From NCBI GenBank assembly GCA_016178595.1, contig JACOSY010000013.1, positions 1-64,000 on the forward strand: DNA of 64,000 nucleotides. Direction: 5' to 3'. Below, piece after piece: positions 27,137 to 33,491 of the stretch. Below the pieces are notes generated by a model, which saw nothing but the letters and a program-made list of their open reading frames with translations, searched no databases and had not been told where the DNA came from. The position numbers and the translations under genes are program-made. This stretch comes from Ignavibacteria bacterium. Lineage in GTDB: Bacteria > Bacteroidota > Ignavibacteria > UBA10030 > SZUA-254. The first letter of the stretch is position 1, and the number at the start of each line of letters is the position of its first letter.

Positions 27137-27377
27137 TTTGCGCACCCACCTTCTCACCTCACGTGCCAGTAAGCATCTTTCGCCGCATGATCCGTTTCTT
27201 GGATGGGAAAATGAGCTATAGAAAGCGGCATAAATCTAAGTATTAGCAAATATTTTTGCATTGTATATCTCGCAAATCTAATATTGAACCGGTAGATTTC
27301 TTAGCCAGAAATTTTGATTTTATCCGCCAAATCATTAAATTTCCTATCATCTCTTTGAGGCGACGAGTCTCATTGAC
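27137..27377. other. AT-rich intergenic stretch before the accessory genes
   Basis: No convincing gene, tRNA or hairpin was found. Composition changes here from about 50% G+C to clearly AT-richer DNA, marking the left edge of the accessory strip. The only strong structure is the terminator hairpin that follows at 27378. Confidence 0.5.
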
Positions 27378-27409
27378 CCCGAGTGGCGAATGCCCTCGGG
27401 ATTTTTTTT
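27378..27409 (+). terminator. strong intrinsic terminator or attenuator in front of the NYN gene
   Basis: CCCGAG-T-GGC-GAAT-GCC-CTCGGG (27378-27400) forms a 9-bp stem with one bulged base and a four-base loop, followed by eight T residues (27402-27409). It lies only 19 bp before the NYN start codon, with the ribosome site GGAGGA in between. It could end transcription from the thr operon or act as an attenuator in a leader. An upstream GAGTC (in CGACGAGTCTC, from 27361) could pair with GACTC in the ribosome-site region GGAGGACTCC. Confidence 0.75.
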
Positions 27410-27428
27410 ATCTGCTGGAGGACTCCAA

Positions 27429-28040
27429 ATGAATCGAGTTGTATTTTTCGTTGATGGATTTAATTTATATCATTCGATCAACGACAATCCCGCCTACCAC
27501 AAGTACAAATGGCTAGACATCGCGAAACTGGCCCGTGCATTTCTAACACAGCAAGATCGGCTTGAAGACATTTTTTACTTTACTGCGCTCACTACTTGGA
27601 ACTCTCCAAAGATGGCCAGGCATAAGTTGTTCATAAAGGCTTTGGAGCTGAGAAATGTAAAAGTTGTTTACGGAGAATTTCGCTCGAAAGATAGATTTTG
27701 CTCTCTCTGTAAGAAAACCTACAGGGTGCACGAAGAAAAACAAACGGATGTCAATATTGCCATTCATCTCTTTCGATTGGCAATCGAAGATCGGTATGAT
27801 ACAGCTTTAATCATCTCTGGTGACAGCGATCTCCTTCCATCTATCAAGGCTGTCCAGTTGGCATTCCCGACAAAGAAGATAGGAGTAATTATTCCTTTTG
27901 GTAGAAGAGCAGAAGAACTTAAGCAGGTTTGCGATCGCCACATGAAAATCAAACTCCACCACTTAGATTCAAGCATGTTTCCAGATGAAATTGACCTAGG
28001 AAATGGCCAGAAGCTACATCGTCCAGTCACATGGAGATGA
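27429..28040 (+). CDS. NYN-domain (PIN-like) nuclease
   Basis: A 203-aa protein of the NYN/LabA branch of the PIN nuclease superfamily, expected to cut RNA with metal-bound Asp residues. The acidic sites are visible: FFVDGFNLYHS at the N-terminus, KQTDVNIAIHLF near residue 102 and IISGDSDLLPSI near 125. A CSLCKKTY pair of Cys lies near residue 90 and may bind zinc. ATG 27429 is set by GGAGGA, 6 nt upstream. Codon use is AT-rich compared with neighbours, which suggests transfer. Its target and any partner are unknown; it is the first gene of the accessory strip. Confidence 0.82.
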   Translation: MNRVVFFVDGFNLYHSINDNPAYHKYKWLDIAKLARAFLTQQDRLEDIFYFTALTTWNSPKMARHKLFIKALELRNVKVVYGEFRSKDRFCSLCKKTYRVHEEKQTDVNIAIHLFRLAIEDRYDTALIISGDSDLLPSIKAVQLAFPTKKIGVIIPFGRRAEELKQVCDRHMKIKLHHLDSSMFPDEIDLGNGQKLHRPVTWR

Positions 28041-28140
28041 CCCCCTCGATTTTCTTCTTTCAAACTTATACATTACCGGATTTTTGTTTCCTCCCCTCAA
28101 TTTAGTACATTCATGCCATTCACCAATAGAAGGTACCGCC

Positions 28141-28524
28141 ATGAAATATCTATGTATTGCCGTAGCTTTGTTCGCTTTGTCAGGATGTGCTGGTTCTGTG
28201 GCATGGCATAGTATGAGAATGGGTTCTACAAACGGAGAGGCTGAAGATAATAACAAGAAAATGATGCAGCTCGAAATCGGTCAGCCCAAAGATTCAGTCT
28301 TAGCGATAATGGGACAACCAACCCGAAGAGAGGCGTATAGATTGGATAACAACCGAGCGGTAGAGTTCCTATTCTACCGGACTCGTGGTTGGTCAAACCA
28401 AGAGTCTGCAGACAATGACGAGCAATTCACTCCGATGGCGTTCGAGGATAAGAAGCTAATCGGTTGGGGAAGAAACTTCTATGATAACATTGTAAAAATA
28501 GCCGTTCAAATAAATGGAAAGTGA
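28141..28524 (+). CDS. lipoprotein with DUF3192/SmpA-like domain
   Basis: A 127-aa lipoprotein: signal peptide with lipobox LSGC, Cys16 lipidated. The mature part carries the LEIGQPKDSVLAIMGQPTRRE pattern (in pieces LEIGQPKDSV and MGQPTRREA), the fold seen in SmpA/BamE and DUF3192 proteins, then FLFYRTRGW and a KKLIGWGRNFYDN end. The FYRT...GWG layout resembles DUF3192. Function unknown. ATG 28141 chosen for the signal peptide and a GAAGGT ribosome site; an upstream in-frame start overlaps the NYN gene. AT-rich like its neighbours. Confidence 0.6.
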   Translation: MKYLCIAVALFALSGCAGSVAWHSMRMGSTNGEAEDNNKKMMQLEIGQPKDSVLAIMGQPTRREAYRLDNNRAVEFLFYRTRGWSNQESADNDEQFTPMAFEDKKLIGWGRNFYDNIVKIAVQINGK

Positions 28525-28554
28525 TTTTACCCGCTTACGAAAAGGAGGACGTAC

Positions 28555-29112
28555 ATGGATTCTTACCTTAGTATATTCGTTTCTGCGCTGTTTACTCTTC
28601 TCGTCGGATGGATTCTAAGATTTGTTATTCCGAAATCCCGGCTGGTCTGGTGGGTATCGCACGATTTCCAATTCATACTACCACCGCCCGGCGGTTCCGA
28701 TCCTTCGATCCAGCCCTTTCCGCTAAAAACACATGCGCTAACAATTCAGAATATTGGAACCGAGATAGCTCATGGAATCGAAATTGCCCACAGAACAAAA
28801 CCGGACTTGTTCAAATTAAACCCAGAACGTATCTACAGTGAACCACCAATACCCTCTGGCGAACATCTCTTAACCATACCGAGTATAGCACCAGGAGAAT
28901 TCATTACGATTGAATTCCTGAGCTATGGAGTTTATCCACAGTTACTGTATGTGCGCTCAGATTGGGGACACGCAAGAAAAATCGATATTCAGCCTCAGCA
29001 AGTTATGCCAAAATGGGCAGCAAGGATTTATCAAATCTTGCTCTATGCTGGAATATACTTCGTCGCCTATTGGGTCATAAGAATCATCCTATACTTCTAT
29101 GGCCACCTTTGA
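28555..29112 (+). CDS. unrecognised membrane protein with two helices
   Basis: A 185-aa protein I cannot assign. It has an N-terminal hydrophobic helix (about residues 3-22), a soluble middle of about 120 residues rich in Pro and Ile, and a C-terminal helix (about 160-182). The middle has a beta-rich look (THALTIQNIGTEIAHGIEI), like small immunoglobulin-type domains between membrane anchors. AGGAGG lies 7 nt before ATG 28555, the best ribosome site in this region. Same strand and AT-rich composition as the two genes before it. Confidence 0.55.
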   Translation: MDSYLSIFVSALFTLLVGWILRFVIPKSRLVWWVSHDFQFILPPPGGSDPSIQPFPLKTHALTIQNIGTEIAHGIEIAHRTKPDLFKLNPERIYSEPPIPSGEHLLTIPSIAPGEFITIEFLSYGVYPQLLYVRSDWGHARKIDIQPQQVMPKWAARIYQILLYAGIYFVAYWVIRIILYFYGHL

Positions 29113-29245
29113 TAACGATGCCTCCAAAAGTAAGATGCTCCATATTGGATTCCCTTGTTGTAGTTATTCCACAGGCGAACAAGTGTCCTTACGAATTTCA
29201 GTGAGTACTATTTCATATTAGGACAGCACCTGGTTTACGCCCACC

Positions 29246-29275
29246 TTGCTTCCCGAACAAATTTTGCTACATTAT
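29246..29275 (+). promoter_or_regulatory. promoter candidate for dcd
   Basis: TTG at 29246-29248, 19 nt, and TACATTAT at 29268-29275 resemble the TTG-N20-TAnnTTTG pattern. The dcd ATG is 45 nt downstream. The remainder of the 208-bp gap between the membrane protein and dcd shows nothing else. Confidence 0.3.
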
Positions 29276-29320
29276 TGAATCATAAGGGCATTTCTATCCG
29301 TTTTCGCACACGATTCCACC

Positions 29321-29860
29321 ATGATTCTTACAGACAAGCAGATACTCGCCGAGATGAAGCGAGGCACTATTGTCCTCAAGCCTTTCAATCGCAAGTATCT
29401 CGGCTCCAACAGCTACGACGTTCATCTTGGCGCGTGGATGGCCCTATACAACGACGAGATCCTGGATGCGAAACTTCACAACGACGTCCACCATTTCAAA
29501 ATCCTTACTGAAGGAATGATCCTCGTTCCGAGCAAGCTCTACCTCGGCGTTACGCAGGAGTACACGGAAACACACAAGCATGTTCCCTTCCTCGAAGGGA
29601 AGAGCAGCATCGGCCGGCTCGGCATTGATATTCATGCGACAGCGGGAAAAGGTGATGTCGGGTTTTGCAACACGTGGACGCTTGAGATCTCAGTCCGGCA
29701 GCCTGTTCGTATTTACGCCGGTATGCCAATCGGCCAGCTCATTTACTTTGAGGTGAGCGGTGAAGTAGATGTTCCGTACAACAAGAAGAAGTCTGCAAAA
29801 TACAACCGTCGATCCATCAAGCCTGTAGAGTCGATGATGTGGAAAAACTTTTCCAAATGA
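29321..29860 (+). CDS. dcd: dCTP deaminase
   Basis: Dcd deaminates dCTP to dUTP for thymidylate synthesis. The 179-aa protein has the family blocks MILTDKQILAEMKRG, YLGSNSYDVHLG, the SSIGRLGIDIHATAG nucleotide loop and the catalytic Glu in TWTLEI near residue 127. G+C and codon use match the chromosome. The last 84 bp (29777-29860) are repeated, with differences, at 31260-31340, and the restriction gene begins inside its stop codon. Dcd homologs can also act in phage defence, but this one looks housekeeping. Confidence 0.92.
   Translation: MILTDKQILAEMKRGTIVLKPFNRKYLGSNSYDVHLGAWMALYNDEILDAKLHNDVHHFKILTEGMILVPSKLYLGVTQEYTETHKHVPFLEGKSSIGRLGIDIHATAGKGDVGFCNTWTLEISVRQPVRIYAGMPIGQLIYFEVSGEVDVPYNKKKSAKYNRRSIKPVESMMWKNFSK
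29777..29860 (+). repeat. direct repeat, left copy (3' end of intact dcd)
   Basis: The first 39 bases, from TACAACAAGAAGAAG, are identical to the copy at 31260. After that come four substitutions and a 3-bp difference, almost all in third codon positions or conservative (Ile/Val). Left boundary of the restriction-modification insert. Confidence 0.9.
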
Positions 29861-30504
29861 AGGTTATGGCTAAACCGGAAACCTTAAAGATCAAAGAACT
29901 GTTCCGTAGAGTATCGGAGCTTTATGAACACCACGACTATCATCATGCTCTGGCCATTCTCTCAACAGACTTTCCAATTGAGTTTAGTGAACTTTGTAAT
30001 GCACTGATAGAGTTTCGTTTAACTAAAGAACAAATCAAGAAACCTGGTGGCAATGAGAGCGAGATTCCCAAAGCATTCTCACATCTATTGCGGAAAAAAG
30101 GGTGGGAGGAAAGAAAACTAACCGCAAAGCTCGTCGTTGATGAGAGTGACGTGGTTTCGGAAGATACGCACTTGATTGATTTTGTAAAAGGCAGAGTCGC
30201 TTTTGACCTTGAATGGAATAGTAAGGATCAAACATTCGACCGGGACCTTTACGCATTCCGAGCATTCTTCGAATATAACAAGATTAGCGTTGCAGTCCTT
30301 GTTACCAGAAGCAACGATCTTGACGGGTATATTGATGCTTTGGGTGAATACAGTGACAAACATGGCGAGACACGAACGTACAAATCAAAGTTTGGTGCAA
30401 GCACAACTCACATGGGTAAACTTATCCCACGCCTAAATGCTGGACGTGGGGGTGGTTGCCCTGTACTCGCAATGGGAATCACGAGGAAGCTCATTCATGA
30501 ATAA
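29857..30504 (+). CDS. BglII/BstYI-family type II restriction endonuclease
   Basis: A 215-aa restriction enzyme of the BglII/BstYI family; known members cut AGATCT or RGATCY. The family core is clear: THLIDFVKGRVAFDLEWNSK with acidic residues (Asp, Asp, Glu) for metal binding, KDQTFDRDLYAFRAFFEYNK, ISVAVLVTRS, and the C-terminal SKFGASTTHMGKLIPRL plus GRGGGCPVLAMGI. The ATG at 29857 overlaps the dcd stop (ATGA); another ATG at 29866 is possible. The cognate methyltransferase follows after 24 bp. Composition is AT-richer than dcd. Actual specificity is not readable. Confidence 0.85.
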   Translation: MKVMAKPETLKIKELFRRVSELYEHHDYHHALAILSTDFPIEFSELCNALIEFRLTKEQIKKPGGNESEIPKAFSHLLRKKGWEERKLTAKLVVDESDVVSEDTHLIDFVKGRVAFDLEWNSKDQTFDRDLYAFRAFFEYNKISVAVLVTRSNDLDGYIDALGEYSDKHGETRTYKSKFGASTTHMGKLIPRLNAGRGGGCPVLAMGITRKLIHE

Positions 30505-30528
30505 AGTAGCAATAGGGAGGCTATCAAT

Positions 30529-31242
30529 ATGACGCATGTGAATCGGATACCGCATCCATCTGCGGCACAAGATCTTTTGGGAAAAGTTAGCGGATTGTAC
30601 GAAACAGTGTTGGCTGATCCACCATGGCGCTTTCTGAACCGAACAGGCAAAATGGCTCCCGAACACAAGAGGCTTCTTCGTTATCCTACTTTAGAGTTCG
30701 AGGAAATATACGAGCTTCCTGTTCGCCAACTCGCTGCTGCAAAAAGTCACCTATACCTTTGGGTACCTAATGCACTGATTGCAGAGGGACTTGAAACTAT
30801 GAAACGATGGGGCTTCACATACAAGACAAATATAGTCTGGTACAAGATACGGAAAGATGGTGGACCCGATGGTCGTGGTGTCGGATTCTATTTTAGGAAT
30901 GTCACGGAGCTCTTGCTATTTGGAGTTCGAGGTGGAATGAGAACACTTTCTCCGGGTAGACGACAAGTCAATATAATTTCTTCTCGGAAAAGAGAGCATT
31001 CACGGAAACCCGATGAAGTCTTTGATATCATCGAATCTTGCAGTCCTGGCCCATATCTCGAACTCTTTGCACGACATCCTCGTCGGGGATGGGTACAGTG
31101 GGGCAACGAGATTGTAGAACAACGCGTATTCCAGCCTGTGGATGAAAGATTTACACCTTTAAGAAAAGGGCCAGCATTTCAAAAGGCAGCCCAACTTGTT
31201 CTGCTGGATCCGAGGACCAAATATCGCCGACGAGCAAAGTAG
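30529..31242 (+). CDS. MT-A70 family adenine-N6 DNA methyltransferase
   Basis: A 237-aa S-adenosylmethionine-dependent N6-adenine methyltransferase of the MT-A70 group. The catalytic DPPW motif is in TVLADPPWRF near residue 30; YLWVPNALIAEGLETM, FTYKTNIVWYKI and ELFARHPRRGWVQWGNE are the other family blocks. GGGAGG lies 8 nt before the ATG. Behind the BglII-type endonuclease, it should protect the host DNA by methylating the A of the shared site. The gene ends 18 bp before the diverged dcd 3' copy. Confidence 0.87.
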   Translation: MTHVNRIPHPSAAQDLLGKVSGLYETVLADPPWRFLNRTGKMAPEHKRLLRYPTLEFEEIYELPVRQLAAAKSHLYLWVPNALIAEGLETMKRWGFTYKTNIVWYKIRKDGGPDGRGVGFYFRNVTELLLFGVRGGMRTLSPGRRQVNIISSRKREHSRKPDEVFDIIESCSPGPYLELFARHPRRGWVQWGNEIVEQRVFQPVDERFTPLRKGPAFQKAAQLVLLDPRTKYRRRAK

Positions 31243-31244
31243 GA

Positions 31245-31340
31245 ATGGTGGAAACTCCCTACAACAAGAAGAAGTCTGCAAAATACAACCGTCGATCCGT
31301 CAAGCCGGTGGAGTCGATGATGTGGAAGAACTTCAAATGA
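31245..31340 (+). pseudogene. dcd 3' remnant, right copy of the direct repeat
   Basis: From about 31248 the sequence reads in frame VETPYNKKKSAKYNRRS then VKPVESMMWKNFK and stop, the end of a dCTP deaminase. The intact gene ends VDVPYNKKKSAKYNRRSIKP...WKNFSK. Strong nucleotide identity covers 31260-31340. There is no start codon, ribosome site or upstream half, so this is a gene remnant. Differences to the intact copy are mostly synonymous, so both ends were shaped as coding sequence before the event. Confidence 0.9.
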
Positions 31341-31376: not shown

Positions 31377-33491
31377 ATGACGCACATCTCATATCGCACA
31401 TCGCACATCAAACCGAGATTGTTTCTCTACGCTCTTTGCTCTCTGCTCTTAGCTTTCAACTCACTCGCTCAGACAAAACGACCAATGGAACTCGAAGACA
31501 TGTTCCGCGTGAAGCGTGTGACAGATCCGCAGTTCTCGCCGGATGGCAAATGGGTCGCCTTTGTCACTACCGTGGTCGATAAGCCAAACAACAAGACCAA
31601 CAGCGACATCTGGATAATTCCTTCGGATGGCAGGGGCGAACCACGACAGCTTACAAACTCGCCGAAGCACGATCGCCATCCCCGGTGGTCGCCGGACGGG
31701 AAGTCGATTGCATTCGAGTCGAACCGTGACGGTTCCTACCAAATTTATATTCAGAACGTCGATGGTGGAGAAGCGCGCAAGCTCACTTCCATCTCCACGG
31801 AAGCCAATCAAGCAATTTGGTCGCACGATAGAACAACCATCGCATTCGTTTCAGCCGTGTTCCCGGAATTTTCCGACAAGCCGTACACAGAAAGCGATGC
31901 ACTGAACAAGAAGAAACAAGACGAGCGCGACAACGGCAAAGTGAAAGCACGCACAATGGACAAGCTCCTCTATCGTCACTGGGATAGTTGGGTGGATGAC
32001 AAACGACAGCACATCTTTATCGTGCCCGCCGATGGAAATGGCGATCCTCGCGACGTGACGCCGGGAGAGAACGATGCGGTTCCAACCTCATCGACATTTT
32101 CTGCCGGCGATGATTTCGATTTCTCCCCCGATGGAAAAGAGCTTGCATTCACTGCGCCGCCGATTCCCCTTCGTGAACAGGCATGGAGGACAGATCACAA
32201 TATTTACACCGTCAATCTCCAAACAGGAGAACGAAAACAGATCACCACGAATCCGGCGGCAGACGGCTATCCACGCTACTCATCGGATGGAAAGTATCTC
32301 GCGTATCGCGCGCAGTCGCGCGCGGGCTTCGAGGCCGACCGGTGGCAGTTGATGGTGTATGATCGGAAGAAGGAAACGGTTCGGAGCCTGACGGAGAATT
32401 TCGATTCCAATGTCGAAGCATTTGAATGGGCGCCGGACGGCAAGAAACTCTACTTCGATGCTGAAGAGAAAGCAAACAAACCGCTCTGGTCCGTTTCACT
32501 GAAAGGCAACGACGTAACAAAGATCGTCGATAATGCGGTGAACGGCGATGCCGGCGTTTCATCCAACGGCAAGGCGCTCATCTTCGCTCATCAATCGTTT
32601 ACACATGCGGCGGAAGTGTACACCGCTTCTTCAAACGGGAAGAATGTCAAGCAGCTCACGCACGTAAACGACAGTCTCTTCGCACAGATTCAGTTCACCG
32701 AGCCGGAATATACATGGGCAACAAGTAAGAACGGCGACAAGATTCAGATGTGGATCATCAAGCCGCCGATGTTCGATGCGACGAAGAAGTACCCGCTCGT
32801 TTTCTGGGTGCATGGCGGTCCGCAGGGCGCCTTTATGAGCTCGTGGTCGACGCGTTGGAATCCGCAAGTCTGGGCTGCGCAAGGGTATGTCGTTTCACTC
32901 TCCAACCCCCGCGGCAGCACGGGCTTCGGACAAAAATTCACCGACGAGATCAGTCACGACTGGGGCGGCAAGGTGTTTGAAGATCTCATGGGCTGTCTTG
33001 ACAAGATGATGCAGCAGCCGTATATCGACACGAGCCGTATGGCTGCCGCAGGCGCATCGTACGGAGGTTACATGATGAACTGGTTCCAGGGACATACCGA
33101 CAAGTTCAAGACGCTCATCACGCACGACGGTGTGTTCGACTTCTACAGCATGTATGGCACGACCGAAGAGGTGTGGTTCGATGAGTGGGAACACGGCAAA
33201 CCCTGGGAGAATCCTGACTTCGACAAGTTCTCGCCGCACAAGTACGCAGCAAATTTCAGGACGCCGAACCTGATCATCCACAACGAGCTTGATTACCGCG
33301 TGCCCTTGACCGAGGGACAGCAGCTGTTCACGACGCTGCAACGCAAAGGTATTCCATCGAAGCTTCTCTATTTCCCGGATGAAGGGCACTGGGTTTTGAA
33401 GCCTGCGAACAGCGAAGTCTGGCACAAAACCATTTTCGAATGGCTGAAGGAGTATCTGAAACCTGAAGCGCCGAAGAGCGGCAGTCAGTGA
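31377..33491 (+). CDS. S9-family serine peptidase (prolyl oligopeptidase type)
   Basis: A 704-aa exported peptidase of the dipeptidyl-peptidase/acylaminoacyl-peptidase branch of S9. The N-terminus is a signal peptide (LFLYALCSLLLAFNSLAQ). Residues about 35-420 form a WD40-like/PD40 beta-propeller (repeats such as FSPDGKWVAF, WSPDGKSIAFES, SPDGKELAF). The C-terminal alpha/beta hydrolase has Ser561 in GASYGGY, Asp639 in ELDYRVP and His671 in EGHWV. It likely trims peptides in the periplasm. The DNA coding for the first 25 residues is made of low-complexity words (CGCACAT; CTCTTTGCTCT) shared with intergenic repeats, so the true start is slightly uncertain. Confidence 0.9.
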   Translation: MTHISYRTSHIKPRLFLYALCSLLLAFNSLAQTKRPMELEDMFRVKRVTDPQFSPDGKWVAFVTTVVDKPNNKTNSDIWIIPSDGRGEPRQLTNSPKHDRHPRWSPDGKSIAFESNRDGSYQIYIQNVDGGEARKLTSISTEANQAIWSHDRTTIAFVSAVFPEFSDKPYTESDALNKKKQDERDNGKVKARTMDKLLYRHWDSWVDDKRQHIFIVPADGNGDPRDVTPGENDAVPTSSTFSAGDDFDFSPDGKELAFTAPPIPLREQAWRTDHNIYTVNLQTGERKQITTNPAADGYPRYSSDGKYLAYRAQSRAGFEADRWQLMVYDRKKETVRSLTENFDSNVEAFEWAPDGKKLYFDAEEKANKPLWSVSLKGNDVTKIVDNAVNGDAGVSSNGKALIFAHQSFTHAAEVYTASSNGKNVKQLTHVNDSLFAQIQFTEPEYTWATSKNGDKIQMWIIKPPMFDATKKYPLVFWVHGGPQGAFMSSWSTRWNPQVWAAQGYVVSLSNPRGSTGFGQKFTDEISHDWGGKVFEDLMGCLDKMMQQPYIDTSRMAAAGASYGGYMMNWFQGHTDKFKTLITHDGVFDFYSMYGTTEEVWFDEWEHGKPWENPDFDKFSPHKYAANFRTPNLIIHNELDYRVPLTEGQQLFTTLQRKGIPSKLLYFPDEGHWVLKPANSEVWHKTIFEWLKEYLKPEAPKSGSQ

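What the first reader, a model, noticed from the sequence alone, without database searches (positions are those of the whole stretch)
29777..31340. Restriction-modification pair bounded by a duplicated dcd 3' end
The BglII-type endonuclease and MT-A70 methyltransferase fill exactly the space between the intact dcd end (29777-29860) and a second, start-less dcd end (31260-31340). The first 39 bases of the two copies are identical, and later differences are mostly synonymous plus one 3-bp change. Restriction-modification genes inserting with long target duplications have been described (Helicobacter pylori comparisons). The divergence also allows gene replacement: an incoming dcd-R-M block displaced the native dcd and left its tail. 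Either way the cassette hooks onto a housekeeping gene without breaking it.
Basis: partly seen in the sequence, partly recalled or inferred. Interest (0 to 1): 0.8.

Follow-up and report, generated by a model that had tools for sequence, protein, structure and literature searches.

The report
Restriction-modification pair with duplicated gene end
A two-gene DNA-cutting and DNA-protecting defence unit has slipped in behind the housekeeping gene dcd, leaving a second copy of dcd's last ~85 bases on its far side; the same kind of scar flanks related units in unrelated bacteria, so this is a further case of a known but mechanistically unexplained way in which such units move.

Summary
The end of dcd (29777-29860) is repeated at 31260-31340 (39 bp identical; blastn 91% over 88 bp, E 9e-25) and the 39-mer occurs nowhere else in the 3.1 Mb genome. 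Between the copies lie only a BglII/BstYI-type endonuclease (PF09195) and an MT-A70 methyltransferase. All 11 family genomes examined downstream of dcd have dcd directly before the S9 peptidase, and none of 97 other genomes of the order has the endonuclease, so the right copy is the original junction and the pair is a later arrival.

New evidence: among 99 related R-M loci, 5 have flanking direct repeats (0 of 290 control positions). One is a dispersed repeat. Two have empty sites in congeners: at the end of an isocitrate dehydrogenase gene (44-66 bp) and a gpsA-like gene (~160 bp, past the stop); in the first the intact gene is clearly native.

This matches 'insertion with long target duplication', published for R-M genes. 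I favour it over gene replacement, which the mostly silent differences between the dcd copies keep alive and which cannot be excluded without a congener. New member of a known kind; the recurrence in one R-M family is the interesting part.

The parts
29321..29860 (+). intact dcd (dCTP deaminase); its 3' end 29777-29860 is the left copy of the repeat
   Evidence: PF22769 5e-33, TIGR02274 9.6e-29 above cut-off; orthologues 79-86% identical in 12 family genomes, followed by the S9 peptidase in the 11 whose downstream sequence is held; GC3 63%, host-like
29857..30504 (+). BglII/BstYI-type restriction endonuclease; ATG overlaps the dcd stop (ATGA); alternative start ATG 29866
   Evidence: PF09195 2.6e-49; D108, E119, N121, K123 invariant in 14 homologues; profile reaches BstYI 1sdo at E 0.01 only; GC3 41%
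30529..31242 (+). MT-A70-family adenine methyltransferase, partner of the endonuclease; stop abuts the right dcd copy
   Evidence: PF05063 1.6e-30, PADLOC MTase_II 1.4e-91, DPPW motif in the translation; adjacent to the endonuclease in nearly all of 106 homologous loci; GC3 38%
31243..31259 (+). junction, weakly dcd-like (GMVETP against GEVDVP)
   Evidence: tblastx alignment
31260..31340 (+). right copy: 3' end of dcd with stop, joined to the original dcd-S9 intergenic DNA
   Evidence: position before S9 matches the uninterrupted junction in relatives
31377..33491 (+). S9 peptidase, the original downstream neighbour of dcd
   Evidence: PF00326 5e-62; directly after dcd in 11 family genomes

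Best explanation
A horizontally acquired type II R-M pair (BglII/BstYI-like endonuclease plus MT-A70 N6-adenine methyltransferase) inserted as a bare two-gene unit, with no transposase, integrase or terminal inverted repeats, at the 3' end of dcd, and the event duplicated about 85 bases of target ('insertion with long target duplication'). The left copy keeps dcd whole; the right copy is a non-functional tail joined to the original junction with the S9 peptidase. Shown: the duplication, foreign composition of the pair, absence from relatives, empty junction in relatives, and two parallel insertions of homologous pairs with congener empty sites. Inferred: that dcd here is native, that the pair is expressed by read-through and translational coupling from dcd (ATGA overlap), that it restricts DNA at a GATC-core site, and the molecular route (joining of the fragment at a widely staggered or resected break whose ends are filled in).
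For: Uninterrupted dcd-S9 in 11 family genomes; endonuclease in 1 of 98 order genomes and 12 of 247 phylum genomes, this genome included in both. R-M GC3 38-41% against 51-71% for native neighbours and 63% for dcd. Flanking repeats at 5 of 99 homologous loci and 0 of 290 control positions. L112: isocitrate dehydrogenase tail repeated (44 bp identical, 66 bp at 91%); relative G145 has the empty site, its gene stop being followed by what follows the right copy in L112, and L112 is 95% identical to it across the gene and upstream DNA, so that gene was not replaced. L099: ~160 bp repeat running past the stop of a gpsA-like gene; congeners have gene and next gene contiguous. Published R-M insertions have target duplications 'in the order of 100 bp' (PMC3874152). 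RGATCY is the most depleted R....Y palindrome in 223 kb of this genome (0.75; 0.93-0.94 in two relatives).
Against: In a discarded tail, random changes would be about 21% synonymous; 3 of 4 are, and the indel is in frame, about 3% by chance if all arose in the right copy. All changes lie in the last 45 bases (P about 0.03). The extra codon (FSK) sits in the functional copy, while the nearest relative and the right copy have FK. These fit two formerly functional alleles slightly better.
Confidence: 0.55

Rival explanations
1. Gene replacement: a block carrying a foreign dcd allele followed by the R-M pair recombined into the native dcd by homology on the left and joined illegitimately on the right within the native tail, so the intact dcd is wholly or partly foreign and the right copy is what remains of the native gene.
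For: Differences between the copies are silent, conservative or in frame; right copy ends FK like nearest relative G009, left ends FSK; weak dcd similarity upstream of the right repeat. In L110 both repeat copies are selB tails unlike the host's own selB, so gene ends can travel with such a pair.
Against: In L112 the intact gene is native by uniform identity. dcd has host-like GC3 and no foreign placement, though the tree is unresolved. A 39-bp identical block between diverged alleles is not expected.
Confidence: 0.3
2. Remnant of an integrase-type element: the 39-bp block is a crossover core, the element brought its own dcd end, and the integrase acts in trans or was lost (a CIME-like element).
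For: Identical core with diverged arms and a restored gene 3' end fit attachment sites; isocitrate dehydrogenase and selC ends are known integrase targets (own knowledge). CIMEs are described as elements keeping attL and attR only (PMC5704250). The genome has 6 Phage_integrase matches, one of them a 34-position fragment.
Against: Targets differ at every locus (dcd, isocitrate dehydrogenase, gpsA-like); the 39-mer occurs only at these two places in the genome; in the relatives dcd runs straight into S9 or pyrF with no room for an integrase; repeat lengths vary (44-160 bp).
Confidence: 0.08
3. Local duplication in place: dcd and its tail duplicated first and the R-M genes entered later, or the repeat is an assembly join.
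For: No congener shows an intermediate state.
Against: The pair fills the space to the base on both sides; the copies differ, so it is not a simple assembly repeat; the same architecture occurs at independent loci with congener empty sites.
Confidence: 0.04

Closest known systems
Insertion with long target duplication of R-M genes (Nobusato et al. 2000, H. pylori; Furuta et al. 2010; summarised in PMC3031569, PMC3874152, PMC1643837)
   Same: R-M genes without a visible transposase, flanked by direct repeats of a target of the order of 100 bp, absent in relatives with an empty site
   Different: Different R-M family and host; target is the dcd 3' end; copies differ by 4 substitutions and a 3-bp indel; ends coincide with the start and stop codons of the pair. 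The two original papers were not held and were not read.
CIMEs (cis-mobilizable elements with attL/attR only; PMC5704250)
   Same: Cargo between two related gene-end sequences, no recombinase inside
   Different: No related integrase element at dcd found; target gene and repeat length differ from locus to locus
BglII/BstYI type II restriction endonucleases (PF09195)
   Same: Pfam family match with invariant D...E-x-N and K residues
   Different: Sequence far from the solved BstYI (E 0.01 with a profile); specificity not known

Membership tests
Insertion with long target duplication (R-M) | direct repeat of target sequence, tens to ~100+ bp, flanking the R-M genes | tested here: met
   78-88 bp repeat, 91-94%
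Insertion with long target duplication (R-M) | related genome with a single uninterrupted copy of the target | tested here: met
   11 family genomes have dcd directly before S9, but only at family level; no congener is held
Insertion with long target duplication (R-M) | both copies derive from the recipient's own target | tested here: inconclusive
   copies differ by 4 substitutions and a 3-bp indel, mostly silent; no congener to polarise
Insertion with long target duplication (R-M) | no transposase, integrase or terminal inverted repeats in the insert | tested here: met
   only two genes; no inverted repeat pairs the ends
BglII/BstYI-type R-M system | PF09195 endonuclease with conserved catalytic residues | tested here: met
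BglII/BstYI-type R-M system | cognate methyltransferase gene adjacent | tested here: met
BglII/BstYI-type R-M system | cleaves and methylates a GATC-core site | tested here: inconclusive
   indirect only: RGATCY observed/expected 0.75 against 0.93-0.94 in two relatives
CIME / integrase-type element | attL/attR related to a recombinase-bearing element at the same gene | tested here: not met
   39-mer only at the two copies; dcd runs straight into S9 or pyrF in the relatives' loci

The most novel reading that the evidence does not exclude
BglII-type endonuclease/MT-A70 pairs form a transposase-free mobile unit, sometimes trimmed to little more than the two reading frames, that repeatedly inserts across gene 3' ends with 45-160 bp target duplications in unrelated phyla, the endonuclease possibly helping to open the target; the recurrent empty sites would make the mechanism of long target duplication experimentally accessible.
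Probability: 0.25. Interest if true: 0.65.

Novelty: new member of a known kind. Interest (0 to 1): 0.42.

Why it matters
Long target duplication by R-M genes was inferred from H. pylori comparisons and, in the papers read here, has no stated mechanism. Finding the scar at several independent loci of one R-M family, two with congener empty sites, gives defined sequences with which to test how a gene pair without a transposase moves.

Tried and rejected
Repeat by chance: rejected (E 9e-25; 39-mer only twice in the genome). dcd tree as a test for a foreign gene: unresolved around this genome. L106 looked like a clean case (87 bp, 99%) but its repeat is dispersed in that genome, so it is not counted as a target duplication. 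L069 (51 bp, 78%, partly terminator-like) and L154 (short, 69%) are weak. L110 is complicated: both copies are selB tails unlike the host's selB, one followed by tRNA-Sec. A 13-bp motif flanking the pair in L112 (GGGTRGCGTCCCC) is not shared by other loci. Phage and plasmid collections hold only endonuclease relatives under 60% identity. No duplication accompanies the other low-GC insert between thrC and dcd.

Full report
The last 84 bases of dcd (29777-29860) recur at 31260-31340, with 39 identical bases followed by three synonymous changes, one Ile/Val change and one in-frame 3-base indel. blastn gives 91% over 88 bp at E 8.7e-25, and a search of the whole genome with up to three mismatches finds the 39-mer only at these two places. 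The endonuclease ATG at 29857 overlaps the dcd stop codon, and the methyltransferase stop at 31242 touches the right copy, so the pair fills the space completely.

The two genes are a BglII/BstYI-type endonuclease (PF09195, E 2.6e-49) and an MT-A70 methyltransferase (PF05063, E 1.6e-30). Residues D108, E119, N121 and K123 are invariant in 14 homologues, so the endonuclease looks intact. The pair is found together, mostly endonuclease first, in about 100 loci from many phyla. In this genome its GC3 is 38-41%, against 51-71% for the neighbouring native genes and 63% for dcd. RGATCY, the BstYI-type site, is the most depleted palindrome of its form in 223 kb of this genome (146 found, 194 expected), less so in two relatives without the pair (0.93, 0.94). 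This is suggestive only: other palindromes are depleted as well, and a third relative avoids GATC strongly without this pair.

The relatives show the state before insertion. dcd is found in 12 of the 14 other family genomes held, and in the 11 whose downstream sequence is held it is followed directly by the S9 peptidase, with pyrF and DUF2851 next where the contig reaches. The endonuclease is in none of 97 other genomes of the order and in 12 of 247 across the phylum, this one included. The right copy is therefore the original junction, and the pair is an addition.

To see whether the scar is peculiar to this locus I searched the flanks of 99 homologous R-M loci for direct repeats, and 290 positions elsewhere in the same loci as controls: 5 against 0. 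One of the five, L106, proved to be a dispersed repeat. Two were resolved by comparison with congeners. In L112 the end of an isocitrate/isopropylmalate dehydrogenase-family gene (taken to be isocitrate dehydrogenase; PF00180) is repeated; relative G145 has the gene followed at once by the sequence that follows the right copy in L112, and L112 is 95% identical to G145 through the gene and its upstream DNA, so the gene is native. In L099 about 160 bp, running past the stop of a gpsA-like gene, is repeated, and several congeners have that gene and the next one contiguous. In L099 the endonuclease starts within a few bases of one repeat, and the methyltransferase reading frame ends inside the other.

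[quoted passage not shown] also PMC3031569, and PMC1643837). The two original papers (Nobusato 2000, Furuta 2010) were not held and are cited through these. How it happens at the molecular level is inference; joining at a widely staggered or resected break followed by fill-in would give such repeats.

What stays open is whether dcd itself was replaced. The differences between the copies are mostly silent and in frame, where a discarded tail should collect mostly non-synonymous changes (79% expected), and all fall in the last 45 bases. That mildly favours two formerly functional alleles. Against replacement stand the native gene in L112 and the host-like composition of dcd. The dcd tree cannot decide, and no genome of the same genus is held. 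I put target duplication at 0.55 and replacement at 0.3. A site-specific element remnant is less likely, because targets and repeat lengths differ between loci and no recombinase element using dcd was seen.

Noticed in passing
window 27137-29320: A second low-GC3 (42-43%) insert between thrC and dcd: a NYN-domain gene (PADLOC HEC-09, 2e-62), a DUF3192 gene and an unknown 185-aa gene. Three relatives have only 37-141 bp here, while G012 has a NYN gene just upstream of dcd, so both sides of dcd take up foreign genes; no repeat flanks this insert.
   Followed up: partly
L110:4584-6440: Salinicola: the R-M pair lies between two selB tails, both unlike the host's own selB; the left one is fused to an aconitase-X-like fragment and followed by tRNA-Sec.
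   Followed up: partly
L082:4297-5579: Two BglII-type endonuclease genes head to head, 39% and 56% identical to the window's, with no MT-A70 gene detected beside them.
   Followed up: no
G003 (L264-L271): Strong avoidance of GATC (0.12), GGCC (0.12) and AGCT (0.23), suggesting other active R-M systems in this relative.
   Followed up: no
G000 contig C15: GAGCTC (0.30) and CAGCTG (0.42) are more depleted than RGATCY, hinting at another R-M specificity in this genome.
   Followed up: no
L112:2053 and 3670: A 13-bp motif GGGTRGCGTCCCC lies just inside both gene-tail copies; absent from the other R-M loci.
   Followed up: partly
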